From NCBI GenBank assembly GCA_021414025.1, contig JAIOPG010000005.1:186001-250000 (forward strand): a DNA stretch of 64,000 nucleotides, in the 5' to 3' direction. Of this stretch, positions 20,632-43,416 are shown piece by piece. Under the pieces are notes generated by a model. The model was not told the DNA's origin. It did no database searches and saw nothing but the letters and a program-made list of their open reading frames with translations. The first letter of the stretch is position 1. The number at the start of each line of letters is the position of its first letter. Origin of the DNA: Planctomycetota bacterium. GTDB lineage: Bacteria; Planctomycetota; Phycisphaerae; Phycisphaerales; SM1A02. The position numbers and the translations under genes were made by a program.

Positions 20632-23600
20632 GTGACCAACACCACCAAAGAACTCAGCAATTCGTTCTCGACCGGCAATGGCGGTGGAGATTTTGAGGCC
20701 CATGTTCAAGCATCGTTTGTTGCACTCATGCTGACCGGTGGATACTCCCCGTGTTTACCGTGCTGGCCAATCAAAAAGGTCAAACTCCAAGGCAAATTTC
20801 TTGACTACAACACTGATGATCTCATTGTTTTTGTGGAAAGTGAGGATGGCCAACAAAAGCGCAAACTCCTTGGACAGATCAAGCACTCGATCGGTATTAC
20901 CGAGCAACACTCCAAATTTGGGGAAGTAATTCAGGCAGCGTGGAATGATTTCAACAATCCAACAATATTCACACACGGCCAAGATGCGATTGCGCTTATC
21001 ACTGGCCCGCTGAGTACAACCGACATCAACGATGTAAGACCTCTTCTAGAACGAGCACGACATGTCGAAAATTTTGTTGAGTTCTTCAAGAGCATGGAGC
21101 TCGCTAGATTTGTCAGCAATGGACAGCGAACAAAGTTAAAGGCGTTTCGAACGCACTTGCAAAAAGCGAACAAGAATGAGGAGGTGTCTGAGGAAAGAGT
21201 CTTTGAGTTTTTGAGACATTTTCACCTCCTTGGTTATGACCTGGATATCAAGGCGGGCGTGACCCTCTCACTGCTTCACTCGTTAATCGGACAAAATTCG
21301 CAAGAGAGTGTGCCTGGGTTGTGGGCACTGCTAGTTAATGCGGTTCGATCGTCAAACAAGAACGCGGGTACCTTGACAAATGAGTCTCTTTCGGATGATC
21401 TGCGAACCGCATTCACAAAGCGAGTTCATCAATCCATTCCGGCCGAATATGCCGTGCCCCTGCTCCCTGTAGTTCAACCCGAACTGAGCAAACTTACCTA
21501 CGCGACCGAGTTGTCAATCGCCTGTGTTCTGGGTTCATGGAACGAAAAAACAAATGCGGACCGTATCATTGTTGAAAAACTTTCTAAAGAAGACTTTTCT
21601 ACATGGATTCGTAAACTTCGGGAGTCACTGCAACAACCCGAGAGCATCCTCTCATTAAAAGATGGGAAATGGTGGGTAATTGATCGGCTCCGATCATGGC
21701 AAGTACTAGGACCAAAACTCTTCGACGAAAACTTGGATGTCTTCAAAGATTGCGCCGTTTCTGTTCTAACCGAGCGCGACCCCAAATTTGATTTGGCTTT
21801 GGAAGAACGCCATGCGGCCAGCATTCACAATAAAGTAATAAAGCACTCAAAACATTTGCGAAAGGGTTTTGCAGAAACCCTGGCACTTCTTGGCACTCAC
21901 CATCAAACACTAACTTTCTGTAGCCCCCACAAACCAGAATTAACAGCGGTTCTTGCCATCCGCGAAATTCTCAACGACGCCGACTGGTCACGCTGGGCCA
22001 GCTTGAACAATCTGCTTCCGCTCCTTGCGGAGGCTGCTCCCGGTGAGTTTCTCGATGCGTTCGAGGCAACACTCGAGAGAGATCCTTGTCCGTTTGATGA
22101 AATATTTGCGCAGGAAAGTGGTGGATTTCTGGGAGGCAACTACATGACCGGTGTGCTTTGGGCGTTAGAGACACTGGCTTGGGATGCGAATCATCTCAGC
22201 CGCGTGGTGATTTGCTTGGGAGAACTTGCCTTGCACGATCCTGGCGGTCGTTGGGCCAATCGTCCAGTCAACTCTCTTACCGCCATCCTGTTGCCATGGT
22301 TGCCACAAACATGCGCCTCGGCTACGAAGCGTTATGCGGCGGTGTCAACGTTACTTAAGGAACTTCCAGATATTGGCTGGAAATTGCTTATGAGGCTTCT
22401 ACCCAATTCAGACTCCACAACATCCGACACGCACAGACCAGCATGGCGAAAAACAATTCCCGATGATTGGAAGAAGGGTGTTTCGCATGGCGAATACCGG
22501 GAACAGATTGAACACTATTCAGAAATGGCGTTCACCGCCGCTAAGGGCAACAGTAAAAGGTTGGCTGTACTCATCCAACACATGGACAACCTGTCACCAC
22601 CCACGCGCAAACAACTTTTAGTGTATCTCGGGTCTGAAGCGGTGATCACAATGATAGAAGTCAACAGACTGGACCCGTGGACCGAGCTCATTAAGCTGGT
22701 AGCAAAACATAGAAAATTTTCGGACGCTAAATGGGCGATGAAACCAGAACAGATCGACGCAATTGACGCTCTCGCCAAACAATTGGCGCCGACGAATCCC
22801 GCATTCCGTCACCTTCGTCTCTTTACCGAACACGATTTTGACTTATTCGAAATGAAGGACGACTACGAAGGGCAACAAAAAGAACTGGAAGAACGTCGCC
22901 AAAAGGCCATAGAAGAAATTTTTGCAACCGGGGGGGCGCTGTCGGTACTTGATTTCGCCAAGACCGTCCCATCACCCTGGCGCGTAGGTGTGGCATTGGG
23001 ATGCATAACAGACAAAGAAGTTGATGGCGTGATCTTGCCTGAACTGCTTGAGTCCGAACAGAAAGCGCTTGTTCAGTTTACGGGTGGGTTCGTACGAGGA
23101 AAACTTCGTTGCCACGGTTGGCAATGGCTTGATGACATCGACACTTCGCAATGGAGTCCTGTGCAAATCGGGCAGCTTCTCGCTTTCTTGCCATTTACGG
23201 CAGATACATGGGATCGCTCGAAACGTCTTCTTGGGAGAAATGACTTTGCGTACTGGAGCAAGACGAATGCTGATCCTTACGGTGATGAGGCGGAACTCGA
23301 AACTGCTATCGATCAATTGATAGTACACAACAGGCCGGATGCGGCATTGCGATGTCTCTATGCGATGCTCGACAAAAAGCCATTTGACAGTAGCCGAGCA
23401 GTACAAGTGCTGTTTGCTGTGCTTAAGTCACCAGAAAGCGTGCATTCGATGTATCACCCCATCATTGAGATCATCAAGGCGCTTCAGAACGACAAGGGTA
23501 CGAATCCCGATGATCTCTTCAAAATTGAATGGGCGTACCTTCCGCTATTAGATCGTCACCGCGGCGCTTCTCCCAAATTAATTGAGCATCGACTAGCGAA

Positions 23601-24162
23601 GGAGCCAAAATTCTTCTGTGAAGTCATTCGATTTGCTTTTCGTTCAAAAAAAGAAGAGCGCCCAACCGAGGAGCTCCCCAAAGAAAAACAAAACATTGCA
23701 GAAAATGCCTATCGCCTATTGAGCGAGTGGCAAACTCCGCCCGGCTATCAGGCGGACGATACATACGATGGTGACGCTTTTGCAGGCTGGCTAGAAGCGG
23801 TGAAGAAAGAGTGCGCGGAAACCGGTCATCTGGAAGTTGCAATGTCAATGGTGGGTCATGTGCTCGTCTATGCACCGCCAGACCCAGGCGGATTGTGGAT
23901 CCATCGCTCAGCTGCGGAGGCGCTCAACGCCAAAGACGCTGAAGAAATGAGAAGTGGATTTGGATCCGAGTTATTCAACTCACGAGGCTTCCACTGGGTC
24001 GACCCTACTGGGAAGCCTGAGAGAGAACTTGCAAGCAAGTATCGGGAGCAGGCCGAAGCCGTTGAAGTCGCTGAATACCACCGGTTAGCGATTACGCTCC
24101 GAGAACTAGCCGCGTCTTATGAACGAGAAGCCGATGGGCTGCTGTTGAGAGCCCCGCGATAA
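20632..24162 (+). CDS. candidate defence protein: Cap4/DUF4297-like nuclease domain with long helical-repeat region
   Basis: An 1176-residue protein of unknown function. The GTG start is set by GAAGGA at 20621-20626. Residues 15-90 carry a PD-(D/E)xK-type pattern as in Cap4/Avs N-terminal nucleases: GGGDFE (E22), TDDLIVF (D62/D63) and GQIKH (Q82, K84). About 1000 residues of predominantly helical sequence follow, with repeated Leu/Trp-rich stretches (LWALETLAW, ILLPWLPQ, GWKLLMRLLP). There is no Walker A that I can find, so it does not look like a STAND NTPase as in Avs. Base composition is visibly AT-richer and codon use differs from der and the following operon, which suggests transfer. It has no same-strand partner: it appears as a one-gene insert. 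Function is inferred, not shown. Confidence 0.75.
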   Translation: MTNTTKELSNSFSTGNGGGDFEAHVQASFVALMLTGGYSPCLPCWPIKKVKLQGKFLDYNTDDLIVFVESEDGQQKRKLLGQIKHSIGITEQHSKFGEVIQAAWNDFNNPTIFTHGQDAIALITGPLSTTDINDVRPLLERARHVENFVEFFKSMELARFVSNGQRTKLKAFRTHLQKANKNEEVSEERVFEFLRHFHLLGYDLDIKAGVTLSLLHSLIGQNSQESVPGLWALLVNAVRSSNKNAGTLTNESLSDDLRTAFTKRVHQSIPAEYAVPLLPVVQPELSKLTYATELSIACVLGSWNEKTNADRIIVEKLSKEDFSTWIRKLRESLQQPESILSLKDGKWWVIDRLRSWQVLGPKLFDENLDVFKDCAVSVLTERDPKFDLALEERHAASIHNKVIKHSKHLRKGFAETLALLGTHHQTLTFCSPHKPELTAVLAIREILNDADWSRWASLNNLLPLLAEAAPGEFLDAFEATLERDPCPFDEIFAQESGGFLGGNYMTGVLWALETLAWDANHLSRVVICLGELALHDPGGRWANRPVNSLTAILLPWLPQTCASATKRYAAVSTLLKELPDIGWKLLMRLLPNSDSTTSDTHRPAWRKTIPDDWKKGVSHGEYREQIEHYSEMAFTAAKGNSKRLAVLIQHMDNLSPPTRKQLLVYLGSEAVITMIEVNRLDPWTELIKLVAKHRKFSDAKWAMKPEQIDAIDALAKQLAPTNPAFRHLRLFTEHDFDLFEMKDDYEGQQKELEERRQKAIEEIFATGGALSVLDFAKTVPSPWRVGVALGCITDKEVDGVILPELLESEQKALVQFTGGFVRGKLRCHGWQWLDDIDTSQWSPVQIGQLLAFLPFTADTWDRSKRLLGRNDFAYWSKTNADPYGDEAELETAIDQLIVHNRPDAALRCLYAMLDKKPFDSSRAVQVLFAVLKSPESVHSMYHPIIEIIKALQNDKGTNPDDLFKIEWAYLPLLDRHRGASPKLIEHRLAKEPKFFCEVIRFAFRSKKEERPTEELPKEKQNIAENAYRLLSEWQTPPGYQADDTYDGDAFAGWLEAVKKECAETGHLEVAMSMVGHVLVYAPPDPGGLWIHRSAAEALNAKDAEEMRSGFGSELFNSRGFHWVDPTGKPERELASKYREQAEAVEVAEYHRLAITLRELAASYEREADGLLLRAPR

Positions 24163-28087: not shown

Positions 28088-28552
28088 CTAGGCGCGAATT
28101 TCCAGGCCGTATCGCCGCGCGGCCTCCATCAGCCTCTTGATGTCGGAGGGGGTCGGTTCGATGGCCGCGGCCTGCGGCGAGGCGAGCGGCGTGCCGACTT
28201 CGGCGAAGAATTTTTCCAGTCCCGCCGGCGAGAGAAGCAGGATCATGCGCCCGGTCGTGCTGCCGGTGTTCTTGAATGTGTGCGGCACATTCCGTTTGCC
28301 AAAGATCGTCTGGCCGGCCTTGACGAGCATGGTCAACCCGGCAACGGTGAAAGTGAACTCGCCTTCGAGAACATGGAACACTTCGTCCTCGTTGTGATGG
28401 ACATGGAGCGGCGGGCCATGCAGGGGCGGAACATACGCGTCGATCATGGCGAACGCCCCGTTGCTTTCTTCGCCCGTGACCAGAAAGTGGTAGCGGTCGC
28501 CGACGACGGAATAGACGCGGCACGATGTGCTTGTATTGGAAGGTGCACTCAT
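28088..28552 (-). CDS. cupin-domain protein (quercetin dioxygenase-like)
   Basis: A 154-residue single-domain cupin. Motif 1 is PPLHVHHNEDEVFHVLEGEF (about 47-66) with the metal-binding HxH...E...H pattern. Motif 2 is GKRNVPHTFKNTG (about 84-96). These are the residues of bicupin-like, metal-binding quercetin-dioxygenase relatives. Substrate unknown. Its start is 134 bases from the divergent deaminase-fusion gene, so the two may share a regulatory region. Confidence 0.85.
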   Translation of the reverse strand: MSAPSNTSTSCRVYSVVGDRYHFLVTGEESNGAFAMIDAYVPPLHGPPLHVHHNEDEVFHVLEGEFTFTVAGLTMLVKAGQTIFGKRNVPHTFKNTGSTTGRMILLLSPAGLEKFFAEVGTPLASPQAAAIEPTPSDIKRLMEAARRYGLEIRA

Positions 28553-28685
28553 GGAGCCACCATTTAACCCGGCATCCCAAGTTGTGGGCGGGCATCTGGT
28601 GACTCAAGCTGAAATTTTCGAATGCCTGGCGAGGAAATGGCGGGAATCCGCCTGTTCGTTGATTTGGATCTATAGACTGCAATTC

Positions 28686-30188
28686 ATGCCGCCACCGCGG
28701 ATGGCTCAATTCAATCCGAGAGAATTCATGGACGATGCTGTCGTGGCCATGCACCGTTCCGTCCCCGAACCGCGCGCGGACGGGAAGGTGAGCCCATTGG
28801 TCGGAGCGGTTCTTTGGAAGCCGGACGGAACCACAGACTCCGCGTGCCGGGGCGAATTGCGAGATGGTGATCACGCCGAGTACGCGCTGCTGGAACGAAA
28901 GAATCGCGATAAGAAACTTGACGGCGCGAGGCTTTTCGTGACGCTCGAACCTTGCTCTCCCGGTTCACGCAGTCATCCGAAGTCGAGCTGCGCGGAACGG
29001 ATCGTTCGCGCACGGATCAAGGAAGTCTGGGTCGGCATCGAGGACCCCGACCCGACGGTGGATCGCAAGGGAATCAAGTACCTGCAGGACAGCGGCGTGA
29101 CGGTCACCATGTTCGATCGCGATTTGCAGGAGCGCATTCGCTCGATGAACAAGGCGTTCATCGCGCAGGCGATGGAAAGGGCAGCGGCAGCCCACGAAGA
29201 CGAAATACCGAAGGCGGTCACGCTGTCGCCGCTGGAAGACGCCTTCACCGCTGCCGAGACGAAGGATTTTTCAACCGAAGCCCTCATGCGGTATCAGGCC
29301 GACGGCCGCATCGGCGAGGCGGTGGATTCGCCCGCCTTCAATCGTCGACTGGTCCAACAGGGCTTGCTCAAGCAGGAAAATGGGAAATCGGTTCCGACCG
29401 GATTCGGACTTCTGCTCTTCGGCAAGGAGCCGAGAACGGCCATGCCGCAGGCCGGGCTTTTGGGCACGATTCACTTTGCTGACGGAACCGAAGAACTGAA
29501 AGACTTTGACGGCCCGCAGGTGCTTGCGCCCGCGCAGGCGCTTCAGTGGCTGCGCGACAAGCTGCCCAATCCGATTGATCGCTCAGCAGCGCGTCGGACG
29601 CTGACGAATGATCCGCTCTTTGAACTCGTGCGCGAAGGCATTGTCAATGCGCTCGTGCATCGTGATTACTCGATCGCCGGTGCAAAGTGCCAGCTGATCG
29701 TCACGCCGGACACCATCATGGTCAAGAGCCCCGGCAGGCCGGTGGACCCGATTTCGGTGGAACAGATGCAGAGTTTCAATGCTCCAATGCTGAGTCGAAA
29801 TCCGATCCTGCATCACGTCTTTGCCCGGATGGAGCTGGCCGAAGAGCGCGGGCTGGGGTTGAAATCCATGAAAGCAAATGCCGAAGTCATGGGATTGCCG
29901 CTGCCAAAATATGCGTGGGAGGATCCCTATTTGGTGCTGACGCTCTACCGCAGTTCCGCCGCCGCGGTGAAGGGACTTGGAGTTGACGTCTCGGAAGCAT
30001 TGACCAATGCCGAGCGGCTGGGATGGAAATGGTTAGCCACCAAAGACACAATCACGACGGCGGAGTACCAGTTGTCGCTGCATGTGCCAAACCGCACGGC
30101 CAAGAATCATCTGAAGAAGTTCACCGACTTGGGCTTGCTCAAGATGGTTGGTGCCGGCCGTGCGACTCGTTACAAAGTGATTCGGTAG
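28686..30188 (+). CDS. nucleoside-deaminase / GHKL ATPase / winged-helix fusion
   Basis: A 500-residue protein with three parts. Residues 10-150 are a RibD/dCMP-deaminase-like zinc domain: the catalytic HAE motif (H63-E65), EPC (C90) and a second ligand Cys at C102, with VWVGIEDPDP after. Residues 230-425 resemble the C-terminal ATPase of AlbA_2/COG2865 'RecG-like' regulators: GLLLFGKEP, the Bergerat N-box REGIVNALVHRDYS (E317, N321), VKSPGRP and the ERGLGLKSM loop. Residues 435-500 form a winged helix (TTAEYQLSLHVPNRTAKNHL). The AlbA_2 domain that normally leads such proteins is replaced by the deaminase. Starts at 28701 or 28728 are possible. It could be a nucleotide-sensing regulator or a defence protein; no function is established. 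Confidence 0.8.
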   Translation: MPPPRMAQFNPREFMDDAVVAMHRSVPEPRADGKVSPLVGAVLWKPDGTTDSACRGELRDGDHAEYALLERKNRDKKLDGARLFVTLEPCSPGSRSHPKSSCAERIVRARIKEVWVGIEDPDPTVDRKGIKYLQDSGVTVTMFDRDLQERIRSMNKAFIAQAMERAAAAHEDEIPKAVTLSPLEDAFTAAETKDFSTEALMRYQADGRIGEAVDSPAFNRRLVQQGLLKQENGKSVPTGFGLLLFGKEPRTAMPQAGLLGTIHFADGTEELKDFDGPQVLAPAQALQWLRDKLPNPIDRSAARRTLTNDPLFELVREGIVNALVHRDYSIAGAKCQLIVTPDTIMVKSPGRPVDPISVEQMQSFNAPMLSRNPILHHVFARMELAEERGLGLKSMKANAEVMGLPLPKYAWEDPYLVLTLYRSSAAAVKGLGVDVSEALTNAERLGWKWLATKDTITTAEYQLSLHVPNRTAKNHLKKFTDLGLLKMVGAGRATRYKVIR

Positions 30189-42708: not shown

Positions 42709-43416
42709 ATGGAACTCTGCTACGCGTGTGCCAACCCCGCAACATCGCGGGAACATGTTCCACCCAAGTGCCTTTTCCCAGAACAAAAGGATGCTGCTGG
42801 TGGCGCAGACTTTCGACATAACTTGATCACGGTTCCATCTTGTGCAGACCACAATTTCCGTAAATCGCGGGATGACGAGTATTTTCTGTATGTTCTCGTC
42901 ACAACTATCACATCAAACCAGACTGCACTAGAGCACTTTCAAACCAAGCTGGCCCGGACAATCATTCGACGCCCCGCGCTGGCCAACACCATTGTCAAGA
43001 GCGGTAAAGAGTGTCACATAGTTGATAGCGCGAACGGCAAGACGCACAATGCGGTGCAGGTTGATTTGGATGGAGAACGGTTTCAAAACACACTTGAACT
43101 AATAGCACGTGGTATTTTTTATCACCACTTCAAAAAGCGATGGATGGGTGGGCTGCGAACACATGCGGACTGGATTGTGTTTCCATCAGAACTAAATTCG
43201 GCAGAGATCGATGCAAATAGAGTTGCCCTTGCAAACAGTGTTGATGCTTTGTTGGCGAACGTACCGAAGCAAGCATCTAGTCCCAATGTCTTCTGGTATC
43301 AGGTAGGCGAGCTGCCCCCCCTTCGCTGCTTGATTCGCCTCGGGTTTTATGGGGGCAGCAAGGCAACCGCTTTCTTCGGTGACATTGACATCCTCAATAA
43401 GCAGCCCGATTTTTAG
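42709..43416 (+). CDS. AT-rich orphan with HNH-like N-terminus
   Basis: A 235-residue protein. Residues 1-55 look like a small zinc/HNH module: C4-x2-C7, EHVPPKCLF (H16, C21), NLITVPSCADHN (C45, H48, N49). The remainder has no recognised domain. The ATG follows AAGGAG. Composition is clearly AT-richer than its neighbours, and it stands alone between the dciA-like gene and a thioesterase, which suggests recent acquisition. HNH modules of this kind occur in nucleases and in defence loci, but catalytic activity cannot be inferred safely. Confidence 0.65.
   Translation: MELCYACANPATSREHVPPKCLFPEQKDAAGGADFRHNLITVPSCADHNFRKSRDDEYFLYVLVTTITSNQTALEHFQTKLARTIIRRPALANTIVKSGKECHIVDSANGKTHNAVQVDLDGERFQNTLELIARGIFYHHFKKRWMGGLRTHADWIVFPSELNSAEIDANRVALANSVDALLANVPKQASSPNVFWYQVGELPPLRCLIRLGFYGGSKATAFFGDIDILNKQPDF

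What the first reader, a model, noticed from the sequence alone, without database searches (positions are those of the whole stretch)
20632..24162. Single-gene AT-rich insert: nuclease-signature plus giant helical protein, possible new defence system
Seen: an 1176-residue protein whose first 90 residues show the GG-x-x-FE, DD-x-I-V and Q-x-K spacing (E22, D62/63, Q82-K84). The remainder is long and mostly helical without a Walker A. The gene is AT-rich between GC-rich housekeeping genes and has no partner. Known: Cap4 and Avs proteins use this N-terminal nuclease type (DUF4297), but Avs add a STAND NTPase and CBASS Cap4 adds a nucleotide sensor. Inference: the helical part could be the phage sensor, making a one-protein abortive-infection system without an NTPase.
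Basis: partly seen in the sequence, partly recalled or inferred. Interest (0 to 1): 0.82.

Follow-up and report, generated by a model that had tools for sequence, protein, structure and literature searches.

The report
Nuclease–solenoid phage-defence protein lacking ATPase
This lone, foreign-looking gene very probably makes a one-piece bacterial immune protein, a DNA-cutting domain of a known defence type joined to a large helical sensor borrowed from another defence family, and unlike its closest relatives it has no energy-using switch domain between them.

Summary
Window 20632-24162 encodes 1176 aa (GC 0.49 and GC3 0.50, against 0.65 and 0.90 in neighbouring der), a single gene with no partner and no Walker A. 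No Pfam, PADLOC, NCBIfam or PDB sequence match exists. AlphaFold2 (pLDDT 86) gives an N-terminal PD-(D/E)xK domain whose best PDB folds are Cap4, Lamassu LmuA, Avs3 and HerA-DUF4297, followed by an importin-like alpha-solenoid. E22, D62, D63, Q82 and K84 are invariant in 37 full-length homologues (39-56% identity) from many phyla, archaea included.

The protein is a domain-swap hybrid. Residues 1-270 are 43-50% identical to the N-terminus of PADLOC Avs4-type STAND proteins. Residues 280-1171 are the sensor of another nuclease family, related by profile to PD-Lambda-4_A (E 5e-14). There the P-loop is intact; in the sister architecture it is degenerate; here it is gone. Homologues sit inside type I R-M and BREX operons, next to PD-Lambda-4_A, at prophage cargo sites in E. 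coli, and on plasmids.

Best reading: a one-protein, NTPase-free, probably abortive nuclease defence triggered by an unidentified phage signal. Defence function is inferred, not shown. Novelty: new variant of a known kind.

The parts
20632..24162 (+). Single-gene candidate defence protein, 1176 aa, GTG start preceded by an AAGGAA-like ribosome-binding site
   Evidence: start agrees with the starts of homologues
20683..21444 (+). PD-(D/E)xK nuclease unit (about residues 18-271): helix 18-34 holding E22, strands 46-52, 64-69 and 76-84 holding D62/D63 and Q82-x-K84, helix 94-107 with the QAAWNDFN motif, then a helical second half
   Evidence: AF2 pLDDT 87, pTM 0.83; Foldseek to Cap4, LmuA, Avs3 and HerA-DUF4297; invariant residues
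20695..20697 (+). E22, predicted metal-site glutamate in helix A
   Evidence: invariant in 37 of 37
20815..20820 (+). D62-D63, predicted catalytic aspartates
   Evidence: invariant in 37 of 37
20875..20883 (+). Q82-I-K84, the (D/E/Q)xK half of the motif
   Evidence: Q82 and K84 invariant in 37 of 37
21424..21477 (+). Low-confidence linker, residues 265-282, at the junction of the two modules; the place where Avs4-type and PD-Lambda-4-type relatives carry their P-loop NTPase
   Evidence: pLDDT below 50 at 265-282; module limits
21469..24144 (+). C-module (about residues 280-1171): alpha-solenoid, the inferred sensor, shared with REase-type, rhizobial HTH-type and PD-Lambda-4_A proteins
   Evidence: HMM hits, hhalign with reversed and Avs4 controls, solenoid folds in Foldseek
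22138..22302 (+). Most conserved C-module block, residues 503-557 (NYxTGxLWALExLAW...DPGGxWANRPxNSLxxIxLPW), also the stretch weakly hit by the PD-Lambda-4_A model

Best explanation
A horizontally acquired, single-gene anti-phage protein. Steps shown by comparison: (1) residues 18-271 are a Cap4/Avs-type PD-(D/E)xK nuclease domain with an intact catalytic set; (2) residues 280-1171 are an alpha-solenoid module homologous to the C-terminal part of PD-Lambda-4_A-type nuclease-STAND proteins; (3) the STAND/P-loop domain that joins effector and sensor in both parent families is absent. Steps inferred: the solenoid holds the protein in an inactive assembly and binds a phage-made (or infection-made) ligand; binding re-arranges or oligomerises the protein, pairs the nuclease domains, and double-stranded DNA (host and phage) is degraded, ending the infection by cell death or arrest. 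The on-switch is binding energy and geometry, not ATP-driven STAND oligomerisation.
For: Fold: the nuclease unit gives Cap4 (E 5.6e-6, prob 1.00), LmuA and Avs3 as all 18 PDB matches with E<=0.001, and HerA-DUF4297 at rank 20. Catalytic residues are invariant across phyla. The same N-domain (43-50% id) is the effector of STAND proteins that PADLOC calls Avs4 (E 2e-193). C-module: profile match to PD-Lambda-4_A C-termini, prob 98.2, E 5e-14 over 660 columns, against 0.2 for reversed sequence and 0.1 for Avs4 C-termini; the sister architecture B aligns with PD-Lambda-4_A over 1022 columns, E 3e-24. Walker A: present in 8 of 8 PD-Lambda-4_A-like and 8 of 8 Avs4-type proteins, absent in 8 of 8 B and in the window. 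Context: HsdM-HsdS-X-HsdR with 4-bp overlaps on both sides (L038), HsdS-X-(AlbA/Fic-like)-HsdR (L066), HsdS-X-PDC-S05-HsdR (L090), X near HsdR (L044, L039), HsdS-X (L035), PglX-X (L056), Eco57I-like methylase-X (L049), PD-Lambda-4_A 121 bp upstream (L043). In E. coli, 7 of 5426 genomes; a lone gene in all 5 loci read, beside prophage tail-fibre-assembly genes in 4 and in a prophage remnant in the fifth. On a Shewanella conjugative plasmid it follows an Abi family gene and a superinfection-exclusion gene. Seven full-length copies on viral contigs. Patchy, phylogeny-defying spread.
Against: No experiment. The sequence does not hit any defence model in PADLOC or the Pfam Cap4/DUF4297 family. Foldseek TM-scores to Cap4 are modest (about 0.44 of the query). 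In the window itself the neighbours are housekeeping genes, not defence genes. No trigger is known, and abortive action is taken from the nuclease type.
Confidence: 0.72

Rival explanations
1. A restriction-like accessory: the protein recognises DNA directly (modification state, ends or replication structures) through its solenoid and cuts phage or plasmid DNA selectively, working together with the R-M or BREX system in whose operon it often lies.
For: Translationally coupled positions inside type I R-M operons and directly after BREX pglX.
Against: The window and E. coli prophage copies stand alone with no R-M or BREX genes beside them, so no partner is obligatory. HEAT/importin-like solenoids mostly bind protein (established knowledge).
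Confidence: 0.15
2. Inter-phage or anti-plasmid exclusion rather than general abortive defence: prophage or plasmid cargo that blocks competing elements, with a non-lethal outcome.
For: Prophage cargo position beside tail-fibre-assembly genes in E. coli, conjugative plasmid copies, viral-contig copies.
Against: Also chromosomal, in R-M/BREX operons and alone in a 2.8-Mb genome. Known relatives of the nuclease degrade both host and phage DNA (PMC11291478).
Confidence: 0.12
3. Decayed remnant of a STAND protein in which the NTPase was lost and function with it, or a housekeeping nuclease unrelated to defence.
For: The same-family genome G368 holds a copy broken by stop codons; the NTPase is missing in the whole clade.
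Against: Full-length open frames at 39-56% identity across phyla with all five catalytic residues invariant show purifying selection on an NTPase-free form. Presence in only 14 of 392 phylum genomes excludes housekeeping.
Confidence: 0.03

Closest known systems
Avs4-type proteins (AVAST type IV; PADLOC PDLC02169) carrying the same N-domain (L061, L062, L065, L091)
   Same: N-terminal unit 43-50% identical over about 265 aa with the same five invariant residues; effector-first single-protein layout
   Different: They have an nSTAND3-type NTPase with Walker A and an unrelated C-terminal sensor (hhalign prob 0.2); the window protein has neither
PD-Lambda-4_A (Vassallo et al. 2022, PMC9519451; PADLOC PDLC03990/PDLC03991)
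   Same: C-terminal module homologous by profile (prob 98.2, E 5e-14); nuclease + sensor layout; a PD-Lambda-4_A gene lies right beside a window homologue in Paenibacillus polymyxa (L043)
   Different: Its REase is a different one (GG[VI]D... Q[IV]K) and its P-loop is intact; the window protein has a Cap4-like nuclease and no P-loop
Architecture B proteins (REase 'PGWDG...WE.G' + degenerate P-loop + same C-module; L003, L050, L141, rhizobial and Thalassospira plasmids, often annotated 'helix-turn-helix transcriptional regulator')
   Same: Same C-module, up to 55% identical (L050); also without Walker A
   Different: Different nuclease and a relic NTPase domain; B is the grade from which, or next to which, the window clade arose
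Cap4 of CBASS (6wan, 6vm6)
   Same: Nuclease fold, best Foldseek hits
   Different: Cap4 is switched on by a cyclic nucleotide through a SAVED domain; here the rest is an alpha-solenoid and no cyclase is present
DSR2 (SIR2 + HEAT solenoid; PMC11263360)
   Same: Works-like model: one protein, enzyme at the N-terminus, helical-repeat sensor at the C-terminus, no NTPase, activated by binding a phage tail tube protein
   Different: Enzyme is a Sir2 NADase; no homology shown
HerA-DUF4297 and Lamassu LmuA
   Same: Same nuclease fold class
   Different: Need a HerA ATPase or an SMC-like partner, absent here

Membership tests
Avs / AVAST | STAND NTPase with Walker A between effector and sensor | tested here: not met
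   No Walker A in the window protein; no NTPase fold or insert between residues 265 and 290; no PADLOC Avs hit
Avs / AVAST | N-terminal effector domain of an Avs type | tested here: met
   43-50% identity to the N-domain of PADLOC Avs4-positive proteins; Avs3 among the top folds
Avs / AVAST | Avs C-terminal sensor homology | tested here: not met
   hhalign C-module vs Avs4 C-termini: prob 0.2
Cap4 / CBASS | Cap4-type PD-(D/E)xK nuclease fold with intact catalytic residues | tested here: met
   Foldseek E 5.6e-6, prob 1.00; invariant E22, D62, D63, Q82, K84
Cap4 / CBASS | Pfam Cap4/DUF4297 sequence-model match | tested here: not met
   No hit in any of 32 N-domains at E<=1
Cap4 / CBASS | SAVED sensor domain and a neighbouring CD-NTase | tested here: not met
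   C-terminal part all helical; neighbours are der and a sulfatase-modifying-type gene
PD-Lambda-4 | PD-Lambda-4_A C-terminal module | tested here: met
   Profile-profile prob 98.2, E 5e-14; reversed control 0.2. Direct model hits only weak, 3 of 37 members
PD-Lambda-4 | Its own REase and intact P-loop NTPase | tested here: not met
   N-domain not homologous (hhalign prob 0.2); no Walker A
PD-Lambda-4 | Second gene (B component) | tested here: not met
   No co-directional partner in the window or beside the E. coli copies; no comparison with a PD-Lambda-4_B model was made
HerA-DUF4297 | HerA ATPase partner | tested here: not met
   No such gene adjacent
DSR2-like (works-like comparison only) | N-terminal enzyme + HEAT-type solenoid without NTPase | tested here: met
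   AF2 topology and Foldseek importin/HEAT hits; the enzyme differs, so not a DSR2 member
Anti-phage defence (function) | Reduces phage plating when expressed | not testable with these tools
   Needs the bench

The most novel reading that the evidence does not exclude
The C-module is a portable phage sensor that needs no NTPase: one recognition unit used in at least four set-ups. These are fused to a REase plus working STAND (PD-Lambda-4_A), to a REase plus dead P-loop (B), to a Cap4-type nuclease alone (the window family), and, in two loci (L070, L114), standing free behind a small gene that shares a short 'HSGxGxN' motif, i.e. an effector in trans. The window family would then be a natural experiment showing that a STAND-derived sensor can switch a nuclease without ATP.
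Probability: 0.45. Interest if true: 0.75.

Novelty: new variant of a known kind. Interest (0 to 1): 0.62.

Why it matters
If true, it is a widespread (archaea to E. coli prophages), uncatalogued one-gene immune protein. It shows a step by which STAND immune receptors lose their ATPase switch while keeping effector and sensor, making it testable whether the NTPase of Avs-like receptors is dispensable. It also identifies a sensor module swapped among several effectors, and explains a group of plasmid proteins now annotated only as transcriptional regulators.

Tried and rejected
Single-sequence scans of Pfam, PADLOC, NCBIfam and PDB gave nothing useful; the DNMT1 and BON-domain PDB hits at E 0.17-0.9 were rejected as chance. 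A profile of the full-length family against PDB sequences also found nothing; a profile of the N-domain gave only chance hits at E about 0.6. The phage genome collection held no match. Flank comparison with same-family genomes to find an empty site was inconclusive: der is conserved, but the gene on the far side is not next to der in relatives. No flanking repeats mark the insert. Promoter and terminator scans were below chance expectation. The viral structure library gave no meaningful hit. A Salmonella Gifsy-prophage defence protein (PMC12724215) was checked as a possible relative and rejected (ParA-like ATPase). No paper in the library mentions the E. coli or Shewanella accessions.

Full report
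Observation. The ORF at 20632-24162 (+) is real: 1176 aa, GTG start. It is compositionally foreign: GC 0.494 and GC3 0.498, against 0.649 and 0.895 in der to the left and 0.634 and 0.785 in the gene to the right; only 5 of 605 equal-sized windows are as AT-rich. It is a lone gene between minus-strand der and a minus-strand formylglycine-generating-enzyme-like gene. The 2.80-Mb host genome holds one copy. Of 392 genomes of the phylum 14 hold a match, the window's own included; one other genome of the same family, G368, has a copy broken by several stops.

No library knows it. The sequence matches no Pfam, PADLOC or NCBIfam family at E<=1 and no PDB chain convincingly. Whole-family and N-domain profiles add no real PDB hit.

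A broad family. A scan of one genome per species found 50 relatives. Many are full-length, 39-56% identical, in Pseudomonadota, Thermodesulfobacteriota, Nitrospirota, Chlorobiota, Chloroflexota, Cyanobacteriota, Bacillota, Bacteroidota, Verrucomicrobiota, Planctomycetota and archaea.

Structure. AlphaFold2 on A2 gives mean pLDDT 85.6. The N-terminus shows helix 18-34 (E22), strands 46-52, 64-69 (D62/D63 at its start) and 76-84 (Q82-x-K84), and helix 94-107: the alpha-beta-beta-beta-alpha core of PD-(D/E)xK enzymes. The N-unit alone (pLDDT 86.8, pTM 0.83) searched against the PDB gives Cap4, LmuA and Avs3 for all 18 matches with E<=0.001, and HerA-DUF4297 at rank 20. TM-scores are modest (about 0.44 of query), so this is same-fold evidence, not close kinship. 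The rest is a long alpha-solenoid whose best folds are importins, CAND1 and other HEAT proteins. The module arrangement is uncertain (pTM 0.52; linker 265-282 has pLDDT below 50). No NTPase fold is present.

Two halves, two origins. Other proteins share only one half. The N-unit recurs at 43-50% identity in 1600-1720-aa proteins where it is followed by an nSTAND3-type NTPase and repeats; PADLOC calls these Avs4 (E 2e-193; Pfam nSTAND3). The C-module recurs, at up to 55% identity (L050), in proteins with another REase-like N-terminus (PGWDG...WE.G) and a degenerate P-loop domain: architecture B, frequent on rhizobial plasmids as 'helix-turn-helix transcriptional regulator'. Architecture B aligns over 1022 columns with PD-Lambda-4_A-like proteins (E 3e-24). 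The combined window+B C-module profile matches PD-Lambda-4_A C-termini with prob 98.2, E 5e-14 over 660 columns; controls with reversed sequence and with Avs4 C-termini give 0.2 and 0.1. Walker A is present in 8 of 8 PD-Lambda-4_A-like and 8 of 8 Avs4-type proteins, and absent in 8 of 8 B and in the window family apart from one chance regex hit.

Tree. In a quick maximum-likelihood tree of C-modules the window-type and D rows form one side of a branch (SH-aLRT 86) next to L050, with B as a grade or clade on the other side. The window is the first branch of the window-type side. D-type stand-alone modules lie inside. The simplest history is one replacement of REase plus relic NTPase by an Avs4-type nuclease unit. 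The root is a midpoint, the careful search did not finish, and some B branches are long, so direction is inferred. The order of rows ignores species phylogeny, as expected for horizontally moving genes.

Context. Among the 141 nearest neighbours in 38 loci, PADLOC finds type I restriction (5), type I methylase (5) and specificity subunits (4) most often; Pfam adds RhuM, YhcG, BrxL, HindVP and Eco57I. Individually checked: L038 reads HsdM-HsdS-X-HsdR with ATGA overlaps on both sides of X; L066 HsdS-X-(AlbA/Fic-like)-HsdR; L090 HsdS-X-PDC-S05-HsdR; L044 and L039 carry HsdR downstream; L035 HsdS-X; L056 PglX-X; L049 Eco57I-like methylase-X; L043 has a full-length PD-Lambda-4_A gene about 120 bp upstream. 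A random draw of 141 bacterial proteins would hold almost no HsdR (estimate from general knowledge; no matched control was run). In E. coli 7 of 5426 genomes carry it; in the five loci read it is a lone 1180-aa hypothetical protein, beside a prophage tail-fibre-assembly gene in four and in a prophage remnant near tRNA-Thr/proA in the fifth; in one genome a P4-like element with DRT3 is nearby. On Shewanella plasmid pSBAL11702 it follows an Abi family gene and superinfection exclusion protein B. Seven full-length copies lie on viral contigs (L108-L113, L115).

Mechanism. From papers: HerA-DUF4297, SeAvs3 and EcCap4 share this nuclease class; Avs3 nuclease domains are activated when tetramerisation pairs them; DUF4297-HerA degrades host and phage DNA and acts by abortive infection (PMC11291478). 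DSR2 shows that an N-terminal enzyme on a HEAT solenoid can be switched by a phage tail tube protein with no NTPase (PMC11263360). By inference the window protein works like DSR2 in layout and like Avs3/Cap4 in output: solenoid binds a phage ligand, nuclease domains pair, DNA is destroyed. Shown: domains, catalytic residues, absent NTPase, defence contexts. Inferred: ligand, activation, abortive outcome.

Comparison and novelty. It is not an Avs (no STAND domain, unrelated sensor), not CBASS Cap4 (no SAVED, no cyclase), and not PD-Lambda-4 (different nuclease, no P-loop, no partner), though it shares one half with each of two of these lineages. No paper found in the held library describes it, but bioRxiv and most subscription papers are not held, so prior description elsewhere cannot be excluded. 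Filed as a new variant of a known kind.

Noticed in passing
L114:7920-10715 and L070:9908-12682, with the small genes just upstream of each: The C-module stands alone (931 and 924 aa) with an N-terminal motif THSGAGHNIARD / NHTGTGHNVAGD, and the ~105-aa gene directly upstream (M[EG]FL..ILSG..YD..K) ends in the matching NHSGTGDN[IV]G: an apparent effector-sensor pair joined by a shared short motif, perhaps amyloid-like signalling.
   Followed up: partly
window 28527-30188 (+): 553-aa fusion of a RibD-like deaminase domain (PDB RibD hits E 1e-10, residues about 87-213) with a C-terminal part weakly like PDB 3lmm and, by eye, a RecG/HATPase-like region; GC about 0.59. Possible defence-type gene.
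   Followed up: partly
window 42709-43416 (+): A second lone AT-rich gene (local GC 0.51), 235 aa, starting with a C-x2-C ... EHVPPKC HNH-like motif, between GC-rich housekeeping genes.
   Followed up: no
plasmid hits H7-H15 and L071:8645-12682: Large rhizobial, Thalassospira and other plasmid proteins annotated 'helix-turn-helix transcriptional regulator' share the C-module; the Thalassospira copy is a B-type nuclease + sensor protein with an added HTH and sits among SIR2, Abi and RES/Xre genes.
   Followed up: partly
L102 (genome G368, 278149-281620): Same-family genome carries a decayed, multiply interrupted copy of the window gene.
   Followed up: no
L093:975-15563: An Avs4-variant-like protein with the same N-unit (1705 aa) lies at the end of a tight run of three large genes (1198, 1009 and 945 aa); possible multi-gene defence operon.
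   Followed up: no
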